Source: Leptolyngbya sp. SIO4C5
GTDB taxonomy: Bacteria; Cyanobacteriota; Cyanobacteriia; Phormidesmidales; Phormidesmidaceae
Length of the DNA: 13,203 nt
Assembly (NCBI GenBank): GCA_010671965.1
Contig: JAAHIC010000049.1
Location: 1 to 13,203 of the forward strand
Direction of reading: 5' to 3'
Both the position numbers and the translations under genes were made by a program. The notes under the pieces were generated by a model. That model did no database searches, was not told the origin of the DNA, and worked only from the letters and a program-made list of their open reading frames with translations. The first letter of the stretch is position 1, and each line of letters opens with the position of its first letter. Positions 6,594 through 13,203 of this stretch are shown here, one piece after another.

Positions 6594-7652
6594 CTATTGG
6601 CGCTTGTGATGCTGCCGCATCGCCTTGTTTATCTGTTTCCAGCGGGCTTTGGAGTTGTGCTGAATCTGCTGATCTTGTCGTCGAGCCAGGTAGGCTTGTT
6701 CGCGCTGCAGCTTCTGGTAGCTGGCTAAGCGATGAGCGCTCAGATCTCCGGTCGTTAGAGCCTGCTGTACAGCACAGCCTGGTTCTTGCTGATGTTGGCA
6801 GTCGCGAAAGTGACAGTTAGCGGCGATCGCTTCAATGTCAGCAAAGGTTTCCTGGACGCTATCTTCTGAAGCCCAAAGTTGAATTTCTCGCAGGCCGGGG
6901 GTATCAATCAGCAGTGCCCCCGTCGGTAACTGCCAAAGTTGGCGGTGGCTGGTGGTATGACGACCGCGACTGTCATCGGCCCGGACGGCCTGAGTGGGTT
7001 GGGCCGCATGGCCTAAAAGCTGATTGGTCAAGGTAGATTTGCCGACACCGGAGGAGCCAATCAGCGCCACGGTTTTGCCGGGTTGCAAAAAGGGATTCAG
7101 GGACTCTATCCCCTGATTTTTCAGGGCACTCAGATAGATGACGGGTACGCCAAAGGCAATCGCCTCGACTGCCGCTAGCTTTTTGTCCAGGCGATCGCAG
7201 ACATCAGCTTTGTTGAGCAGAATCACTGGACTGGTGCCGCTCTCCCAGGTGAGCGTGAGGTAGCGTTCAATCCGGCGCAAGTTGAAGTCATCGTCTAGGC
7301 CAGAGACGATAAATACGGTATCAATATTGGCAGCAACGACCTGAGCTTCAGTTTTGCTGCCTGCCACTTTGCGCACAACCTGACTTTGACGGGGCAGGAG
7401 GTTGTGGATAATGGCGGGTGTCGTGTCAGGCTGAATCACGACCCAGTCACCTACGGCAGGAAAATCCTGGAGCTGAGCCGCCTGATGACGAAATTTACCG
7501 CTCACGACAGCGGCGATTTCACCCTGAACAGTGACGAGCTGGTAGCGCTGTCGCTGCTCAACTAGAACTCTGCCAGCAGCAAAGCCTGGGGGGGCGATCG
7601 CGCTAAACACCTGCGCTAAGCGATCGCACCAACCAAATTGTTGCAATGTCAT
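6594..7652 (-). CDS. rsgA: small ribosomal subunit biogenesis GTPase RsgA
   Basis: A circularly permuted GTPase (352 aa) of the RsgA/YjeQ family that assists late 30S maturation and checks the decoding centre. The order of motifs shows the permutation: OB-fold region (about 25-90), G4 NKAD (147-150), G5 SAL (175-177), G1/Walker A GSSGVGKS (199-206), G2 region GRHTT (230-234), G3 DTPG (250-253), then the zinc-binding subdomain with C280, C285, H287 and C293. The C-terminal helix is basic and ends HHKRQ. The start ATG 7650-7652 has GAGGAA (complement of 7662-7667) nine bases upstream. An eight-base perfect inverted repeat sits directly upstream of that ribosome binding site. Length is normal. 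Confidence 0.97.
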   Translation of the reverse strand: MTLQQFGWCDRLAQVFSAIAPPGFAAGRVLVEQRQRYQLVTVQGEIAAVVSGKFRHQAAQLQDFPAVGDWVVIQPDTTPAIIHNLLPRQSQVVRKVAGSKTEAQVVAANIDTVFIVSGLDDDFNLRRIERYLTLTWESGTSPVILLNKADVCDRLDKKLAAVEAIAFGVPVIYLSALKNQGIESLNPFLQPGKTVALIGSSGVGKSTLTNQLLGHAAQPTQAVRADDSRGRHTTSHRQLWQLPTGALLIDTPGLREIQLWASEDSVQETFADIEAIAANCHFRDCQHQQEPGCAVQQALTTGDLSAHRLASYQKLQREQAYLARRQDQQIQHNSKARWKQINKAMRQHHKRQ

Positions 7653-8197: not shown

Positions 8198-9850
8198 ATG
8201 CTGCCAGTACAAAAAGAAACGGTGTCGATGACCACCCGCGATCGCATTCGCTTAGACGCCGATGTTTATAGACCTGCCACAGAGGGCGAGTTTCCCGTCT
8301 TGCTGATGCGACAGCCCTACGGACGGGCGATCGCCTCTACCGTGGTCTATGCCCATCCCATCTGGTACGCCGCTCAGGGTTACATTGTGGTGATTCAGGA
8401 CGTGCGCGGACGCGGCACTTCAGAGGGCAAGTTTCGCCTGTTTGCGACTGAAGTGGCCGACGGGGAAGACACGATAAACTGGGCGGCGCAGCTTCCCGGC
8501 AGCACCGGACAGGTGGGTATGTATGGCTTTTCCTACCAGGGCATGACCCAGCTCTACGCGGCTGCGGCCAAGCCGCCTGCACTCAAAGCGATCGCTCCGG
8601 CAATGGTGGGCTACGACCTCTATGCCGACTGGGCCTACGAAAATGGAGCGCTGTGCTTACAAGCAGGGTTGGGCTGGGCGCTGCAGCTAGCGGCAGAAAC
8701 GGCGCGGCTGCGCGGTGAAGCAGCAGCTTACCAAAAGCTGTATGCCGCCGCTCGCAACTTACCCCTGAACGAGACGCTGCCTACCCGACCGCAAATCCTC
8801 TCAGAGCTGGCCCCAGACTCCTTTTTCCACGACTGGCTAGATCACCCCCAGCCCGATGCCTACTGGGCAGGACTGAAGCCCCAGCTTGCAGCGGTTAAAC
8901 TGCCTATGCTGCACGTAGGCGGCTGGTTTGACCCCTATTTGCGGGGAGATGTGCGTCTGTTTCAGGCGATGCAGGGCAGAGCGCCTCAGCACTTTTGGGT
9001 TGGCCCTTGGGGACATATTCCCTGGGGGCGCATCGCGGGCGATCGCGACTTTGGCCCCGCTGCCGCTAGTCCTATCGATCGTCTGCAAATTCGCTGGTTT
9101 AATCACTTTTTAAAGGGTGAAGAGACTGGGCTGCTGGCGGAGGCACCCGTTTGTCTATTTGAAATGGGAACAAATCGGTGGCGTCAGTTTGCCGCTTGGC
9201 CTGGAGGTAAAGAAGCGACTTTTTACCTCAGCAGCAGTGGTTTGGCCGGAATGCGTGAGGATGATGGGCAGCTAGTTGAGAGTAATAGCCTGACTGAGTC
9301 AGTCACAGATGCAATCGTGCATGATCCTTGGCGTCCGGTGCCTTCTCTGGGCGGTCATGCTGGCATTCCGGCTGGCTCTTTTGAGCGATCGCTGATAGAT
9401 AACCGCAGCGATGTTCTGACTTACACCACGCCGACTCTAAATTCAGACCTGCACGTTGTTGGCGAGGTCGTGGCCGAGATTCACTGCGCCGCGGATGCTC
9501 CCAGCTTTGATCTTTGCGTCATTTTGTCTGAGGTAGATACTTTAGGACAGGTTTATAACCTGACTCAGGGCTATGGCCGCTTTGAGTCGGCTGAAACGAA
9601 CTTGACCCTGCCGCAAACATGCAGGCTAGTTCTTCAGCCCACCTGCTTTTGTATCCCTGCCGGAAATGCTTTGCGCCTGAGCCTGAGCGCTGCCTGCTTC
9701 CCTGCCTATGCCGTCAATCCAGGTACTGGGGCTACAGCAGGTGCAAGCCGTCTGATTGAGTCGCAGATGATAACGCTAGCGATCGCCTCTGGCGGTAAGC
9801 ACGATTCCAAGATTCAGCTAGCAAGTTTAAGTCAGGCAATCTTGACTTAA
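8198..9850 (+). CDS. CocE/NonD family (S15-like) alpha/beta hydrolase
   Basis: A 550-aa hydrolase of the CocE/X-Pro dipeptidyl-peptidase S15 family; members cleave esters, amides or proline-adjacent peptide bonds. The N-terminal part shows RDRIRLDADVYRP (14-26), MRQPYGR and DVRGRGTSEG (68-77). The catalytic triad is readable: Ser112 in GFSYQG, Asp245 in GGWFDPYLRG, and His273 in GPWGHIPWG. A helical cap lies at about 140-235. From about 310 to the end is the jelly-roll C-terminal domain of the family. No signal peptide is visible, so it is probably cytoplasmic. ATG 8198 is chosen because a stop precedes it in frame at 8165 and ATG 8228 would shorten the first strand; no strong Shine-Dalgarno is seen. 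The substrate cannot be predicted. Confidence 0.93.
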   Translation: MLPVQKETVSMTTRDRIRLDADVYRPATEGEFPVLLMRQPYGRAIASTVVYAHPIWYAAQGYIVVIQDVRGRGTSEGKFRLFATEVADGEDTINWAAQLPGSTGQVGMYGFSYQGMTQLYAAAAKPPALKAIAPAMVGYDLYADWAYENGALCLQAGLGWALQLAAETARLRGEAAAYQKLYAAARNLPLNETLPTRPQILSELAPDSFFHDWLDHPQPDAYWAGLKPQLAAVKLPMLHVGGWFDPYLRGDVRLFQAMQGRAPQHFWVGPWGHIPWGRIAGDRDFGPAAASPIDRLQIRWFNHFLKGEETGLLAEAPVCLFEMGTNRWRQFAAWPGGKEATFYLSSSGLAGMREDDGQLVESNSLTESVTDAIVHDPWRPVPSLGGHAGIPAGSFERSLIDNRSDVLTYTTPTLNSDLHVVGEVVAEIHCAADAPSFDLCVILSEVDTLGQVYNLTQGYGRFESAETNLTLPQTCRLVLQPTCFCIPAGNALRLSLSAACFPAYAVNPGTGATAGASRLIESQMITLAIASGGKHDSKIQLASLSQAILT

Positions 9851-9870
9851 TCTTTATATTGCAAAAACGC

Positions 9871-9911
9871 TTCACAATATCTTTAACCAGCGTTCATTTT
9901 AGCTTCACAAA
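9871..9911 (+). promoter_or_regulatory. 11-base-phased direct repeats resembling a Pho box
   Basis: Four eight-base units start exactly 11 bases apart: TTCACAAT (9871), TTTAACCA (9882), TTCATTTT (9893) and TTCACAAA (9904). The 8+3 spacing is that of PhoB/SphR-type (OmpR-family) operators. The second unit fits the cyanobacterial Pho consensus YTTAAYYW fully and the third at six of eight positions; the outer two fit poorly. The AT-rich dyad ATATTG/CAATAT (9856-9880) overlaps it and might terminate the hydrolase transcript. Confidence 0.4.
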
Positions 9912-9922
9912 AAAGGGTGCAA

Positions 9923-9928
9923 CTATAT
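9923..9928 (+). promoter_or_regulatory. -10-like box downstream of the phased repeats
   Basis: CTATAT lies 11 bases after the last phased unit, the geometry expected when a PhoB-type activator replaces the -35. Transcription would start near 9936, just before the first hairpin of the array. Confidence 0.35.
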
Positions 9929-9935
9929 GGTTCAC

Positions 9936-10465
9936 GACTCTTTAAAGCCTGCAATATCAAGGCTTTAGCTGTATTAGAGAACACAGATTAAAAAAAATAT
10001 TAAGCAAGCAAGATTATCCGATTATGGAAGCTTATACTTATCCATACGGTAATCACTGAGATACTTACAGACTTCAGGAATTGATCGTCGCAGTATCAAA
10101 CACCTTTTCAGGAATCGCAATCAGCTCTCCTTAGAGCTTTTCAGATTCAACCGTATTCGGATAGGATTAAATCCGACTTGGAAAAACAACAAGACTTGGA
10201 GGTTTTTAGCAAACTGCTTGAAATTAGTCACTTCAAAATGAAGCAGTTTCAGATATTGAAAGGGCTTAGCAAGTTTGGGGAAACCTGCTAAGCCTCTACA
10301 AAGTCAAATCTGAAAGCTTCAGCCTTTGAATTTGTAGCTCACACATTTATGGACTGAGTTGGTTGGCTTTTGGGGAAAAGCCTGCCAAACATCCTTCTTT
10401 GACTGAACCTTCTGCTAGCTCAACTGTCGTTAAGATGCTGCCTCATATTGAGTCAGTAACTCAAT
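9936..10465 (+). ncRNA. candidate structured RNA: array of about eleven stem-loops
   Basis: This gene-free stretch is AT-rich, lacks HIP1 sites, and is filled with non-overlapping stems: TAAAGCCT/AGGCTTTA (9943-9967); a 13-pair bulged stem (10012-10054); GATACT/AGTATC (10060-10097); AGCTCT-CCTT-AGAGCT then TTT (10123-10141); TCGGAT/ATCCGA (10157-10176); AAAAAC/GTTTTT (10182-10207); AAACTGCTT/AAGCAGTTT (10211-10249); GGCTTAGCA/TGCTAAGCC with inner GTTT-GGGG-AAAC (10263-10294); CAAAT/ATTTG enclosing CTGAA/TTCAG (10305-10334); a GGCTTTT-GGGG-AAAAGCC stem extended by GG/CC and TT/AA (10359-10388); and ATTGAGT-CAGTA-ACTCAAT (10447-10465). It may be the leader of the peroxidase gene or a separate RNA. 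I cannot match it to a known family; strand is inferred from neighbours and a few G-U pairs. Confidence 0.45.
10263..10390 (+). repeat. twin hairpins with identical TTTGGGGAAA apices
   Basis: The hairpins at 10263-10294 and 10359-10388 share TTTGGGGAAA at the tip (10274-10283, 10369-10378), and each is followed by CCTGCYAARC on the 3' side. Their outer stems differ in sequence but both remain paired, as expected for a duplicated element kept for structure. Another TTTGGGG occurs at 10574-10580. Confidence 0.45.
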
Positions 10466-10468
10466 CTC

Positions 10469-12748
10469 ATGCCTAATTATATTCTCGTAGCGTCAGCGGG
10501 CATCCCTCTAGCGATAGGGATCTTATGGGCGACTACTCCTTCTAGACGCTTCTTTCAAAAATTAGTTCCCAAATTTGGGGGACTGGGAACACCCTCGTTT
10601 GTAGCCTTTAAGAATTTGCTAAGGCGACGGTTTCGGATTCAGCGAACTCTATCTGTCGCAATGCTCATTGTTGCTGTAATTGCTGCTGGACAAGTGGCTT
10701 CAGCCCAGATAGAAACCGATTCTCTACAGCCACTTAACCACGCAGCTGTTCCCAAACCCAGTAACCTCAGGAATTTTGTGAAGAACGAAGAGGCCCTAGT
10801 GAGGCTAGGAAAAGCCTTATTCTGGGATATCCAAATTGGTTCAGATGGCAAAACTTCCTGCGCTAGCTGCCACTTTCATGCCGGAGCTGACAACCGTTCC
10901 CGTAATCAGCTCAGTCCAGGACTGCTCCAGGTGGCTCGTACAGATGAAACTAGGGAAGACGGGGAATTTGTTGAAAATCCTGATACGACAGTTCAGCTCG
11001 GCGGGCTGAACTATCAGCTCAAACCCCGTGACTTTCCTTTCCATAAGCTATCTAACCCCAATCGACGCGGTTCTACAGTCCTAGCAGATACCAATGATGT
11101 CGCCTCTTCGCAAGGGGTACACAACAGCATCTTTGATCAGCAGACGGGAGAGTCTACCCCCGAACCGGATGAGGTGTTTAACATTCATGGCATCAATGTG
11201 CGCAAGGTTGAGCCGCGCAACACGCCAAGCGTGATTAATGCAGTTTTCAATTTCCGTAACTTTTGGGATGGCCGCGCTCAAGAGAATTTCAACGGCGTAA
11301 ATCCCTTTGGTAAGCGCGATTCTAGTGCAGTCGTGCTGAAGCGATCGCGTGAAGGAGAGCTGGAACCAACTCAGATTAGCCTCAACAATTCTTCCTTGGC
11401 TTCTCAGGCCGTTGGTCCGCCAATCAGCGCTTTTGAAATGTCTGCCGAAGGCCGCACCTTTTCTGATATTGGCCGCCGTGCTCGTAAGCGCCGCGCCAAA
11501 GCCGCCACTCGAATGCTCAGTCTGCGACCTCTGGCGAAGCAAGCTGTAGCCTCTGATGATAGCGTGTTGGGGCCTATCAGCAGGGAGCTTAAAAATGGCC
11601 TAAACGTCAACTATCGCCGTCTCATCCGGGATGCTTTCCGTAACAAGTGGTGGAACAGTGACACATTAGTGGCCTTGAATGATGAAGGCGATATCACTTT
11701 CGTAGACGGTAAGCCGCTCAATCAGGCCGCCCCCAATGAATTCTCTCAAATGGAGTTCAACTTCTCACTCTTCTTTGGCTTGGCCGTACAAGCCTACGAA
11801 GCGACGCTGATTTCGGATGACACCCCTGTCGATCGCTATCTTGCCGGCGACAGCAGCGCCCTCACCCGCAGCGAGATTCGCGGTATGGAAGTGTTTGAAA
11901 CCAAGGGTAAGTGCATTAGCTGCCATGCCGGACCAGAACTGACTAAAGCCTCTGTCGCCAATGTCAAGAACCAGCCTTTAGAGCGGATGGTGATGGCTAA
12001 CGATCGCGTTGCGGTCTATGACAACGGTTTCTACAACATTGGGGTGCGTCCGACGACGGAAGACCTAGGGGTGGGGGGCAAAGATCCCTTTGGTAATCCT
12101 TTGTCAATGACTGAGCTGGAGCAGCAGCAAGGACGGCCTTTCCCGGTTGTACCAGGTGAAGATCCAGCTCCCACTAGGCGGCTGCGGCCCAATGAGCGCA
12201 CCGCTGTCAATGGTGCTTTCAAAACGCCGGGTCTGCGTAACATTGCTCTTACCGCCCCTTACTTCCATAATGGCGGGCAGCTTACTCTAGAGCAGGTAGT
12301 TGATTTCTACAACCGCGGCGGTGACTTCAGAAACAACCGCGATCGCGATCCTGACATTGAGCGCTTAGGGCTTACCAATCGCGAGAAGAAGGATCTGGTG
12401 GCCTTCATGGAAGCTCTCACAGACGAACGGGTGATATACGATCGTGCTCCATTTGATCACCCAGAACTGCCCTTGCCTAATGGTCAGCGGGGGAATGAAA
12501 GTGCCGTCAAAGATAACGATGGCGACGGTCAGGCTGAAGATCGCAAGGTCGTGCTGCCAGCAGTGGGCAAGAACGGTTGGACAGGCAGTCCCAACTTCCT
12601 CAATCAGCCCATTCCGGTGCGGACATCAGCCACTATTGAACCAACGGTAGATCCTTCGCCGCTAGGCGGCGGCATCAGTCCGCAAGATGCCAACTGCCCA
12701 GCCGGCACTACCTACGTTGCGCTACCCGGTGGCTATATCTGTCAGTAG
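10469..12748 (+). CDS. exported di-heme cytochrome c peroxidase-like protein (MauG/CcpA superfamily)
   Basis: A large (759 aa) di-heme c-type cytochrome of the bacterial peroxidase/MauG superfamily. Heme 1 is CASCH (C131, C134, H135) after GKALFWDIQIGSDGKTS; heme 2 is CISCH (C482, C485, H486). Other family marks are NTPSVINAVFNFRNFWDGRA (W266), FYNIGVRP (Y522) and TPGLRNIALTAPYFHNGG (H600). Typical members are about 330-400 aa; the excess comes from insertions, including the basic RRARKRRAKAATR near 340, and a tail with DNDGDG (682-687, EF-hand-like) and two Cys near the C-terminus. A signal peptide (RRRFRIQR, then a hydrophobic run ending ASAQ, about 52-80) places it in the periplasm or lumen. 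The start is uncertain: ATG 10469 adds another hydrophobic stretch, whereas TTG 10616 would begin directly at the signal peptide. Substrate unknown. Confidence 0.9.
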   Translation: MPNYILVASAGIPLAIGILWATTPSRRFFQKLVPKFGGLGTPSFVAFKNLLRRRFRIQRTLSVAMLIVAVIAAGQVASAQIETDSLQPLNHAAVPKPSNLRNFVKNEEALVRLGKALFWDIQIGSDGKTSCASCHFHAGADNRSRNQLSPGLLQVARTDETREDGEFVENPDTTVQLGGLNYQLKPRDFPFHKLSNPNRRGSTVLADTNDVASSQGVHNSIFDQQTGESTPEPDEVFNIHGINVRKVEPRNTPSVINAVFNFRNFWDGRAQENFNGVNPFGKRDSSAVVLKRSREGELEPTQISLNNSSLASQAVGPPISAFEMSAEGRTFSDIGRRARKRRAKAATRMLSLRPLAKQAVASDDSVLGPISRELKNGLNVNYRRLIRDAFRNKWWNSDTLVALNDEGDITFVDGKPLNQAAPNEFSQMEFNFSLFFGLAVQAYEATLISDDTPVDRYLAGDSSALTRSEIRGMEVFETKGKCISCHAGPELTKASVANVKNQPLERMVMANDRVAVYDNGFYNIGVRPTTEDLGVGGKDPFGNPLSMTELEQQQGRPFPVVPGEDPAPTRRLRPNERTAVNGAFKTPGLRNIALTAPYFHNGGQLTLEQVVDFYNRGGDFRNNRDRDPDIERLGLTNREKKDLVAFMEALTDERVIYDRAPFDHPELPLPNGQRGNESAVKDNDGDGQAEDRKVVLPAVGKNGWTGSPNFLNQPIPVRTSATIEPTVDPSPLGGGISPQDANCPAGTTYVALPGGYICQ

Positions 12749-12790
12749 CGCTGAGTCAAAAAGCTATAGAGTTCTGTTGCTTGAACCCAA

Positions 12791-12832
12791 GTGGGAATTG
12801 ATCTCGGAATCTATCGGAGATCAATTCCCCAC
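12791..12832. terminator. long hairpin after the peroxidase gene
   Basis: GTGGGAATTGATCTC (12791-12805) pairs with 12817-12832, perfect over 15 pairs except for one bulged C, around an 11-base loop. The T-rich tail is interrupted (TTTCAAACTTTT). It is a likely terminator or a processing/stability element between the peroxidase and the next gene. Confidence 0.5.
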
Positions 12833-12890
12833 CGCTAGCTTTCAAACTTTTACTCCAGAGTCTTGAACGGTAACGCTTCACGTTTCAATT

Positions 12891-12901: not shown

Positions 12902-13203
12902 ATGAACATCATCAAAACAGCTTTAGGGACTGCTCTAATCTCTGCTATTACAGTAGGACTGATCCCTGCTTCAGCTCAGGTAGAGCCTGTAATCAGTGAA
13001 ATAGAAGGCCCTTTGCAGAATGTGCGAGTCAATCAGCGAGAACTGAGGGTGATGAATATCACGATTAAGGTTCCTGAAGGAACTCCCATTAATTCGCCTA
13101 CGGCAGAGCTATCTTTTGAAGATCTCAACGCTTTACCGAGACTGCCCGGTCGCAACCGAGATGGGTTTGAAGGCGGTACTGCCATCGTGATCGGTACACC
13201 TGA
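12902..13203 (+). CDS. exported protein of unknown function (5' part only)
   Basis: The first 100 codons of a protein that runs off the window. It begins MNIIKTALGTALISAITVG and has a clear signal peptide, with a probable cleavage after IPASA before QVEP (about residue 25). The mature part alternates polar and hydrophobic residues (VRVNQRELRVMNITIKVPEG, then GGTAIVIGTP), suggesting a beta-rich fold, possibly OB-like. I do not recognise the family. It lies 153 bases after the exported peroxidase in the same direction, with a long hairpin between; since both are secreted they may work together, but this is inference. GAGGAA and ATG give a secure start. Confidence 0.8.
   Translation, partial: MNIIKTALGTALISAITVGLIPASAQVEPVISEIEGPLQNVRVNQRELRVMNITIKVPEGTPINSPTAELSFEDLNALPRLPGRNRDGFEGGTAIVIGTP

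What the first reader, a model, noticed from the sequence alone, without database searches (positions are those of the whole stretch)
9936..10465. Dense array of about eleven stem-loops between hydrolase and peroxidase genes
Nearly all of this 530-base, HIP1-free, gene-free stretch can be assigned to adjacent perfect or near-perfect stems (6-13 pairs each), several with nested inner stems. Random AT-rich DNA gives some short dyads, but not a tidy non-overlapping file of this density with 9-base perfect arms (10211-10249, 10263-10294). It could be an ornate noncoding RNA or an extremely long regulatory leader for the exported peroxidase.
Basis: partly seen in the sequence, partly recalled or inferred. 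Interest (0 to 1): 0.7.

Follow-up and report, generated by a model that had tools for sequence, protein, structure and literature searches.

The report
Hairpin-rich spacer before a peroxidase gene
A 530-base gap between two genes of a cyanobacterium really is packed with small hairpins, but no related stretch was found in the sequences that could be searched, so whether it makes a working RNA or is just hairpin-prone spacer DNA remains open.

Summary
In 9936-10465 a uniform search finds 11 perfect stems (arms of 6 or more), none overlapping another; 500 shuffles average 4.1 and none reaches 11. Folding beats shuffles on both strands (z -4.2, -5.2). By Watson-Crick local folding the stretch ties with the most extreme of 1101 windows of its genome, though its borders were picked by eye; the fixed-grid window over it ranks fifth. 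No Rfam match; no convincing relative in 94 near or 387 class genomes, or in phages and plasmids; no comparable stem array upstream of 73 peroxidase homologues. On the plus strand G-U pairs add less than in any of 31 real RNAs measured; the minus strand is compatible with an RNA. I favour, slightly, a lineage-restricted spacer shaped by DNA-level inverted-repeat mutation over either RNA reading alone; the RNA readings together are about as likely. An Almyronema record carrying homologues of both flanking genes could decide it but was out of reach.

The parts
8198..9850 (+). CocE/NonD-type (PepX/S15) hydrolase ORF
   Evidence: PF02129 3e-74, PF08530 9e-24; source names say CocE/NonD
9827..9850 (+). 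intrinsic-terminator-like hairpin plus T-rich tail at the hydrolase end
   Evidence: the only terminator-like site found in 9700-10700 on either strand (shuffles mean 0.9)
9904..9931 (+). sigma-70-like hexamer pair TTCACA-16-TATGGT; would start an RNA near 9938, just before the array
   Evidence: 9 of 12 matches; 1 found, 2.0 expected in shuffles, so weak
9936..10465 (.). hairpin array: 11 non-overlapping perfect stems
9943..9967 (.). stem, arms of 8, loop 9
10023..10046 (.). stem, arms of 6, loop 12, inside a longer imperfect stem in the fold
10060..10097 (.). stem, arms of 6, loop 26 with inner stem
10123..10138 (.). stem, arms of 6, loop 4
10157..10176 (.). stem, arms of 6, loop 8
10182..10207 (.). 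stem, arms of 6, loop 14
10211..10249 (.). stem, perfect arms of 9, loop 21
10263..10294 (.). stem of 9 + 4 Watson-Crick pairs around one A-C mismatch (G-U on the minus strand), GGGG/CCCC tip
10296..10337 (.). nested stem, outer arms of 7 with inner stems of 5 and 5
10365..10382 (.). stem, arms of 7, loop GGGG; tip TTTGGGGAAA shared with 10263-10294
10447..10465 (.). stem, arms of 7, loop 5, ending 3 bases before the ATG
10469..12748 (+). di-haem cytochrome c peroxidase (CCP/MauG family); start supported by a similar N-terminus in P0003 (compared by eye)

Best explanation
A long, AT-rich, lineage-restricted spacer upstream of the peroxidase gene, filled with short, nearly perfect inverted repeats that arose at the DNA level (local template-switch or quasi-palindrome-type mutation in loosely constrained DNA) and were not selected as one RNA fold. 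If it is transcribed at all, the likeliest way is as the 5' part of the peroxidase mRNA from a promoter near 9904-9931, where the hairpins would at most slow RNA decay or mask the start codon. Shown: the excess of stems, its mainly Watson-Crick character, the absence of reachable relatives, and a different sequence at the same place in the one same-genus genome. Inferred: the mutational origin, the transcription and any effect on the mRNA.
For: On the plus strand G-U adds less than in shuffles (gain z +3.2), outside the range of 31 rnpB/tmRNA on their own strand (-2.2 to +1.9). The excess is larger when G-U is forbidden (z -6.1 + / -6.9 - against -4.3 / -5.3); on the plus strand by 1.9 units, where the largest such shift among the 31 real RNAs is 1.4. 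A strong z is no mark of an RNA gene here: without G-U all 31 real RNAs score weaker (at best -4.8) than the region (-6.1 +, -5.5 -), while two palindromic-repeat spacers (L178, L204) reach -5.3 to -8.4 with G-U. No DNA relative in 94 other near genomes, none by model R1 in 387 other class genomes. In same-genus G001 the hydrolase (78%) is followed by DNA without a match to the window. Template switching is published as able to create perfect hairpins (PMC8794818: abstract, start of the introduction and passages read).
Against: Scoring better without G-U is not special: 14 of the 31 real RNAs do so too (2 ties), and they are about as strand-symmetric as the region (asymmetry z -2.1 to +1.5 against 1.1). 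With G-U, tmRNA L240 (-4.2) ties the region's plus strand (-4.2 for 9851-10468, -4.5 for 9936-10465). The minus strand is compatible with RNA (gain z +1.0) (all). A general mutational process should fill other spacers too, yet this is first of 83 by stem count (z 4.5, next 3.1). Direct counting of G-T against A-C in stems was too small to judge (0 and 1). No ancestral sequence was available, so no template-switch event was observed. Homologues of hydrolase and peroxidase in an Almyronema MAG both list a 72,765-base contig, so the locus may be old.
Confidence: 0.4

Rival explanations
1. An extremely long structured 5' leader of the peroxidase mRNA (plus strand, about 530 nt from near 9938 to the ATG at 10469), acting on stability or translation.
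For: Layout: terminator-like hairpin at 9827-9850, one promoter-like pair at 9904-9931, array 9936-10465, ATG at 10469; plus-strand fold z -4.2. The closest homologue with reachable DNA (Scytolyngbya, L008) also has a long, well-folding upstream spacer (z -4.5/-4.9).
Against: Promoter-like sites: 1 found where shuffles give 2.0. None of 73 upstream regions reaches stem-count z 3 (best 2.6; L008 2.2); 7 of 73 reach fold z <= -4 on a strand, and three of these (L033, L043, L084) do so with long perfect palindromes (seen by eye). G-U gain on the plus strand z +3.2. L008 is not among the 40 best blastn matches to the stretch and is not hit by model R1.
Confidence: 0.2
2. A new lineage-specific structured noncoding RNA, more likely read from the minus strand (fold z -5.2; core 10208-10342 z -4.8; two hairpins with CCCC loops).
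For: Minus strand folds better; core 10208-10342 z -4.8, 0 of 200 shuffles; its G-U use lies within the range of real RNAs. The tip TTTGGGGAAA followed within 2 bases by CCTGCYAA occurs twice in the whole genome, both on hairpin tips here.
Against: No Rfam match at gathering; best below-threshold E 0.17. Model R1, built from one sequence and so weak, finds nothing at E <= 0.01 in 387 other class genomes (strict filters) and only an E 0.23 match in 84 other loci (L049). The simple scan shows no minus-strand promoter or terminator in 9700-10700. Self-similarity as strong as the tip pair occurs in 44 of 200 shuffles, and the tip motif also occurs once in G019.
Confidence: 0.22
3. A chance extreme of ordinary AT-rich spacer DNA, noticed because a reader looked for it.
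For: Stem-count z >=4 occurs in 8 of 2169 windows, also in coding DNA; counting overlapping stems, 17 of 500 shuffles reach 11; borders fit the array; the grid window is fifth of 1101 by folding.
Against: 0 of 500 shuffles reach 11 non-overlapping stems; first of 83 spacers; the only windows of 2169 with 10 stems are the two over this region.
Confidence: 0.14
4. Relic of a mobile or repeated palindromic element.
For: AT-rich (GC 0.37-0.42), HIP1-free, not at the same place in G001; palindromic repeats exist elsewhere in this genome (seen by eye).
Against: Single copy in its own genome; no six-frame Pfam or NCBIfam trace; no phage or plasmid match; no direct-repeat family inside.
Confidence: 0.04

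Closest known systems
REP / GTAG-tagged palindromic repeats (PMC3733652)
   Same: Short stem-loops, stems of 5-13 bp, often clustered, known in cyanobacteria (abstract and passages read).
   Different: REPs are multicopy families sharing sequence and a tag; the stretch here is single copy and its stems differ from each other apart from one shared tip.
Large bacterial structured noncoding RNAs (OLE, GOLLD, ROOL; names recalled)
   Same: Several hundred noncoding bases with many stems (recalled).
   Different: No match to any Rfam 15 family on either strand at gathering; no relatives found.
Cyanobacterial cis-regulatory leader motifs such as psaA (PMC2864571)
   Same: Hairpins in a possible 5' UTR (psaA has three hairpins; passages read).
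   Different: Those were found by conservation across species; no comparable array was seen upstream of 73 peroxidase homologues.
Quasi-palindromes perfected by template switching (PMC8794818)
   Same: Near-perfect Watson-Crick hairpins created at the DNA level (abstract and passages read).
   Different: No ancestral sequence is available here to show an event; I did not see a dense file of eleven described in the passages read.

Membership tests
Any Rfam 15 RNA family | covariance-model score at or above gathering | tested here: not met
   0 matches in the window; 3 matches at E<=10 in 9700-10700, all below gathering, best E 0.17
Conserved leader of the peroxidase gene | similar stem array upstream of homologous peroxidases | tested here: not met
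   0 of 73 upstream regions with stem-count z >=3 (85 loci, of which 4 dropped for reversed orientation, 7 with under 150 nt, own copy excluded); model R1 at E<=1 finds only an E 0.23 match among the 84 other loci
Conserved leader of the peroxidase gene | compensatory base changes in close orthologues | not testable with these tools
   closest proteins P0002 (80%) and P0003 (74%) came without DNA
REP / palindromic repeat family | many copies in the genome | tested here: not met
   only itself at E<=0.001; 13 further matches at E<=10, all short, best E 0.33
Intrinsic terminators | GC-rich hairpin followed by a T run | tested here: not met
   one site in 9700-10700, at 9827-9850, outside the array
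tRNA/tmRNA cluster | ARAGORN hits | tested here: not met
   0 genes in the window
Structured noncoding RNA | G-U use like that of real RNAs | tested here: inconclusive
   plus strand outside the range of 31 real RNAs (+3.2), minus strand inside it (+1.0)
Structured noncoding RNA | transcript of the region | not testable with these tools
   no RNA data
DNA template-switch product | ancestral sequence lacking the inverted copy | not testable with these tools
   no close relative of the spacer reachable

The most novel reading that the evidence does not exclude
A new, lineage-restricted ornate RNA of about 530 nt, either a multi-hairpin leader of an exported di-haem peroxidase or a minus-strand RNA with two CCCC-loop hairpins, that by local Watson-Crick folding stands further from shuffled sequence than rnpB or tmRNA of its relatives.
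Probability: 0.35. Interest if true: 0.65.

Novelty: new member of a known kind. Interest (0 to 1): 0.3.

Why it matters
If it is an RNA, it would be a sizeable structured RNA with no match in Rfam 15, tied to a redox enzyme gene. If it is DNA-level inverted-repeat build-up, it warns that a strong folding z-score in one genome does not identify an RNA gene: two palindromic-repeat spacers of this genome outscore all 31 rnpB and tmRNA measured under the same local fold. The G-U-gain comparison against real RNAs of the same class is a cheap extra check.

Tried and rejected
Known RNA family (none at gathering). tRNA or tmRNA genes (none). Hidden or decayed gene: six frames with stops read as X against Pfam and NCBIfam (none); the longest ORF overlapping 9851-10468 has 47 aa and lies mostly outside it, the next 37 aa. 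Phage or plasmid origin (no match); two hairpin patterns in viral contigs (0 matches). Dispersed repeat. NtcA-like and LexA-like sites by regular expression, consensus recalled (none in the window). Direct repeat behind the shared TTTGGGGAAA tips: unique in the genome as a motif, but matched by 44 of 200 shuffles as self-similarity, so not claimed. G-U against A-C counts in stems: too few. The ten cross-genome matches are more than the roughly 4 that E <= 0.01 over 388 genomes would give; I looked at the seven that came as loci: 23-42 bases each, five inside stop-free frames of 156-739 codons, none extending further, except that L196 has a second 19-base match 1.2 kb away; L193 (83% over 42 bases of the stem at 10296-10337) is the most hairpin-like and was not pursued. 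A shared element with L008: no listed blastn match, no model hit; the L008 spacer itself was found in none of 57 relatives of its genome except a 27-base match. One search was translated one base out of frame and was replaced.

Full report
Place and surroundings. The stretch 9851-10468 separates a CocE/NonD-type (PepX/S15) hydrolase (8198-9850, +) from a di-haem cytochrome c peroxidase (10469-12748, +). The peroxidase start at 10469 is supported by P0003, whose N-terminus is similar in kind (compared by eye). GC is 0.37-0.42 in the 300-base windows of the stretch, against 0.46-0.63 in windows inside the two flanking genes. The window is one whole contig of a 5.6-Mb draft genome of 1203 contigs; the best named relatives of both proteins are cyanobacteria.

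The observation. A uniform count of perfect Watson-Crick stems (arms >=6, loop 3-40) in 9936-10465 returns 11, all mutually non-overlapping; 500 shuffles give 4.07 +- 1.41 and none reaches 11. If overlapping stems are counted too, 17 of 500 shuffles reach 11. Unrestricted folding gives z -4.2 on plus and -5.2 on minus, 0 of 100 shuffles as good on either strand. The strongest part is 10201-10400 (z -3.7 and -5.9).

Control against the genome itself. I sampled about 635 kb of the genome (59 + 20 contig stretches and the window) and took its 83 gene-free stretches of >=250 nt (ORFs of >=90 codons masked). By stem count the region is first of 83 (z 4.5, next 3.1). By local folding with G-U it is third of 83; 6 of 83, itself included, have z <= -4, and the two ahead of it, L204 and L178, carry a dispersed palindromic repeat (seen by eye). 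Over 1101 grid windows with Watson-Crick-only folding and 20 shuffles each, the exact region scores -6.96 against -6.95 for the most extreme window; the grid window on it is fifth (-5.42). By stem count in 2169 windows the result is milder: 8 have z >=4, one within the rsgA ORF of this window, although the largest count, 10, is found only in the two windows over this region.

Does it look like an RNA? I measured 17 of the 18 above-cut-off rnpB and all 14 above-cut-off tmRNA in the same way. On their own strand they score z -0.2 to -4.2 with G-U and +0.3 to -4.8 without; the region scores -4.2 / -4.8 (plus / minus) with and -6.1 / -5.5 without. So no real RNA beats it, but one tmRNA ties its plus strand when G-U is allowed. 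Scoring better without G-U is not special in itself: 14 of 31 real RNAs do, with 2 ties; nor is strand symmetry. What does stand out is the gain from G-U: z +3.2 on the plus strand, outside the -2.2 to +1.9 of the real RNAs; the minus strand (+1.0) is inside. So a plus-strand RNA is disfavoured and a minus-strand one is not. The span limit of 60 penalises rnpB and tmRNA, which have long-range pairs (recalled), so the comparison of z is only indicative. Direct counting of G-U against A-C positions was too small to help.

Relatives. I found none that convinces. DNA: only itself among 95 near genomes. In 388 class genomes there are ten matches besides itself, 23-70 bases, E 0.0025-0.0097 per genome, somewhat more than the roughly 4 expected at that cut-off; of the seven that came as loci, five lie in long open frames and none shows the array. 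Phages and plasmids: none. Rfam: none at gathering. Model R1 of the minus-strand core 10208-10342 (one sequence, so weak) finds only the source in 388 genomes (strict filters) and, in the window plus 85 loci, the source, its plus-strand image and one E 0.23 match. Same-genus G001 has the hydrolase at 78%, no DNA match behind it and no peroxidase at E <= 1e-30. The peroxidase is in 5 of 95 near genomes including its own and at E <= 1e-100 in no other of 63 genomes of the order.

Upstream regions of homologous peroxidases. Of 85 loci (L002-L086), 4 were dropped for reversed orientation, 7 had spacers under 150 nt, and the own copy was set aside, leaving 73. None reaches stem-count z 3 (best 2.6); 7 of 73 fold at z <= -4 on some strand. 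Of the four I looked at, L033, L043 and L084 owe it to long perfect palindromes. The fourth, Scytolyngbya L008, is the closest homologue with reachable DNA (z -4.5/-4.9; stem count z 2.2); I found no shared sequence and count it as weak support for a structured upstream region, at about the 1-in-10 rate of the set.

A locus that could decide. The nearest peroxidase (P0002, 80%) and a 76% hydrolase (P0123) are both named Almyronema sp. MAG and both list a longest contig of 72,765 bases. They most likely lie on one contig, so the gene pair is probably old and a homologous spacer may exist in the public record. I could not fetch it.

How it most likely works. I place slightly more weight on DNA-level inverted-repeat build-up in a weakly constrained, lineage-restricted spacer (0.40) than on either RNA reading alone (leader 0.20, ncRNA 0.22); together the RNA readings are about as likely. 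Template switching can create perfect hairpins in one step (PMC8794818; abstract, start of introduction and passages read). The main weakness is that such a process should not single out one spacer of 83. The leader has a tidy layout (terminator-like 9827-9850, promoter-like 9904-9931, array, ATG), but the promoter match is no better than chance. The ncRNA reading fits the minus strand best. The hairpins 10263-10294 and 10365-10382 share a tip found only there in the genome, yet equal self-similarity occurs in 44 of 200 shuffles. On checking, I lowered the DNA-level reading from 0.45 to 0.40 and raised the others a little, because the recount showed that 14 of 31 real RNAs also score better without G-U and that one ties the region.

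Verdict. Observation confirmed, interpretation open. Interest is moderate to low until the Almyronema spacer or RNA-seq is examined. I make no claim about what is or is not in print on this stretch; papers used are cited by identifier with what I saw of them.

Noticed in passing
L178:6074-6581 and L204:1588-2002 (own genome): A dispersed palindromic element (GTAGGATGGGCAAAG ... CCGTGCCCATC type) present twice in each of these spacers (by eye), which are the two strongest-folding of the 83 sampled.
   Followed up: partly
window 12791-12832: Long near-perfect hairpin (GTGGGAATTGATCTC ... GAGATCAATTCCCCAC) between the peroxidase and the next gene, without a T run; the 120-nt window 12721-12840 has z about -5.6 on both strands.
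   Followed up: no
window 12902-13203: ORF running off the contig end, N-terminus like a signal peptide (by eye), no Pfam match for the first 100 residues; possibly co-transcribed with the peroxidase.
   Followed up: no
L087:7225-7410 (own genome): Several spaced copies of CGCTGAATTGGTACACAT next to a long inverted repeat, resembling the end of a mobile element (recalled, not tested).
   Followed up: no
window 6891-7420: Nine non-overlapping perfect stems inside the rsgA coding sequence, z 4.2, showing that stem count alone reaches such values in genes.
   Followed up: no
window 10274-10283 and 10369-10378: TTTGGGGAAA twice in the window (0.04 expected), both at hairpin tips in this stretch; with CCTGCYAA following within 2 bases it is unique to them in the genome and occurs once in 94 other genomes searched.
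   Followed up: partly
L193:1501-1540 (class genome G279): 83% match over 42 bases to the nested stem at 10296-10337; one of ten short cross-genome matches, possibly chance.
   Followed up: partly
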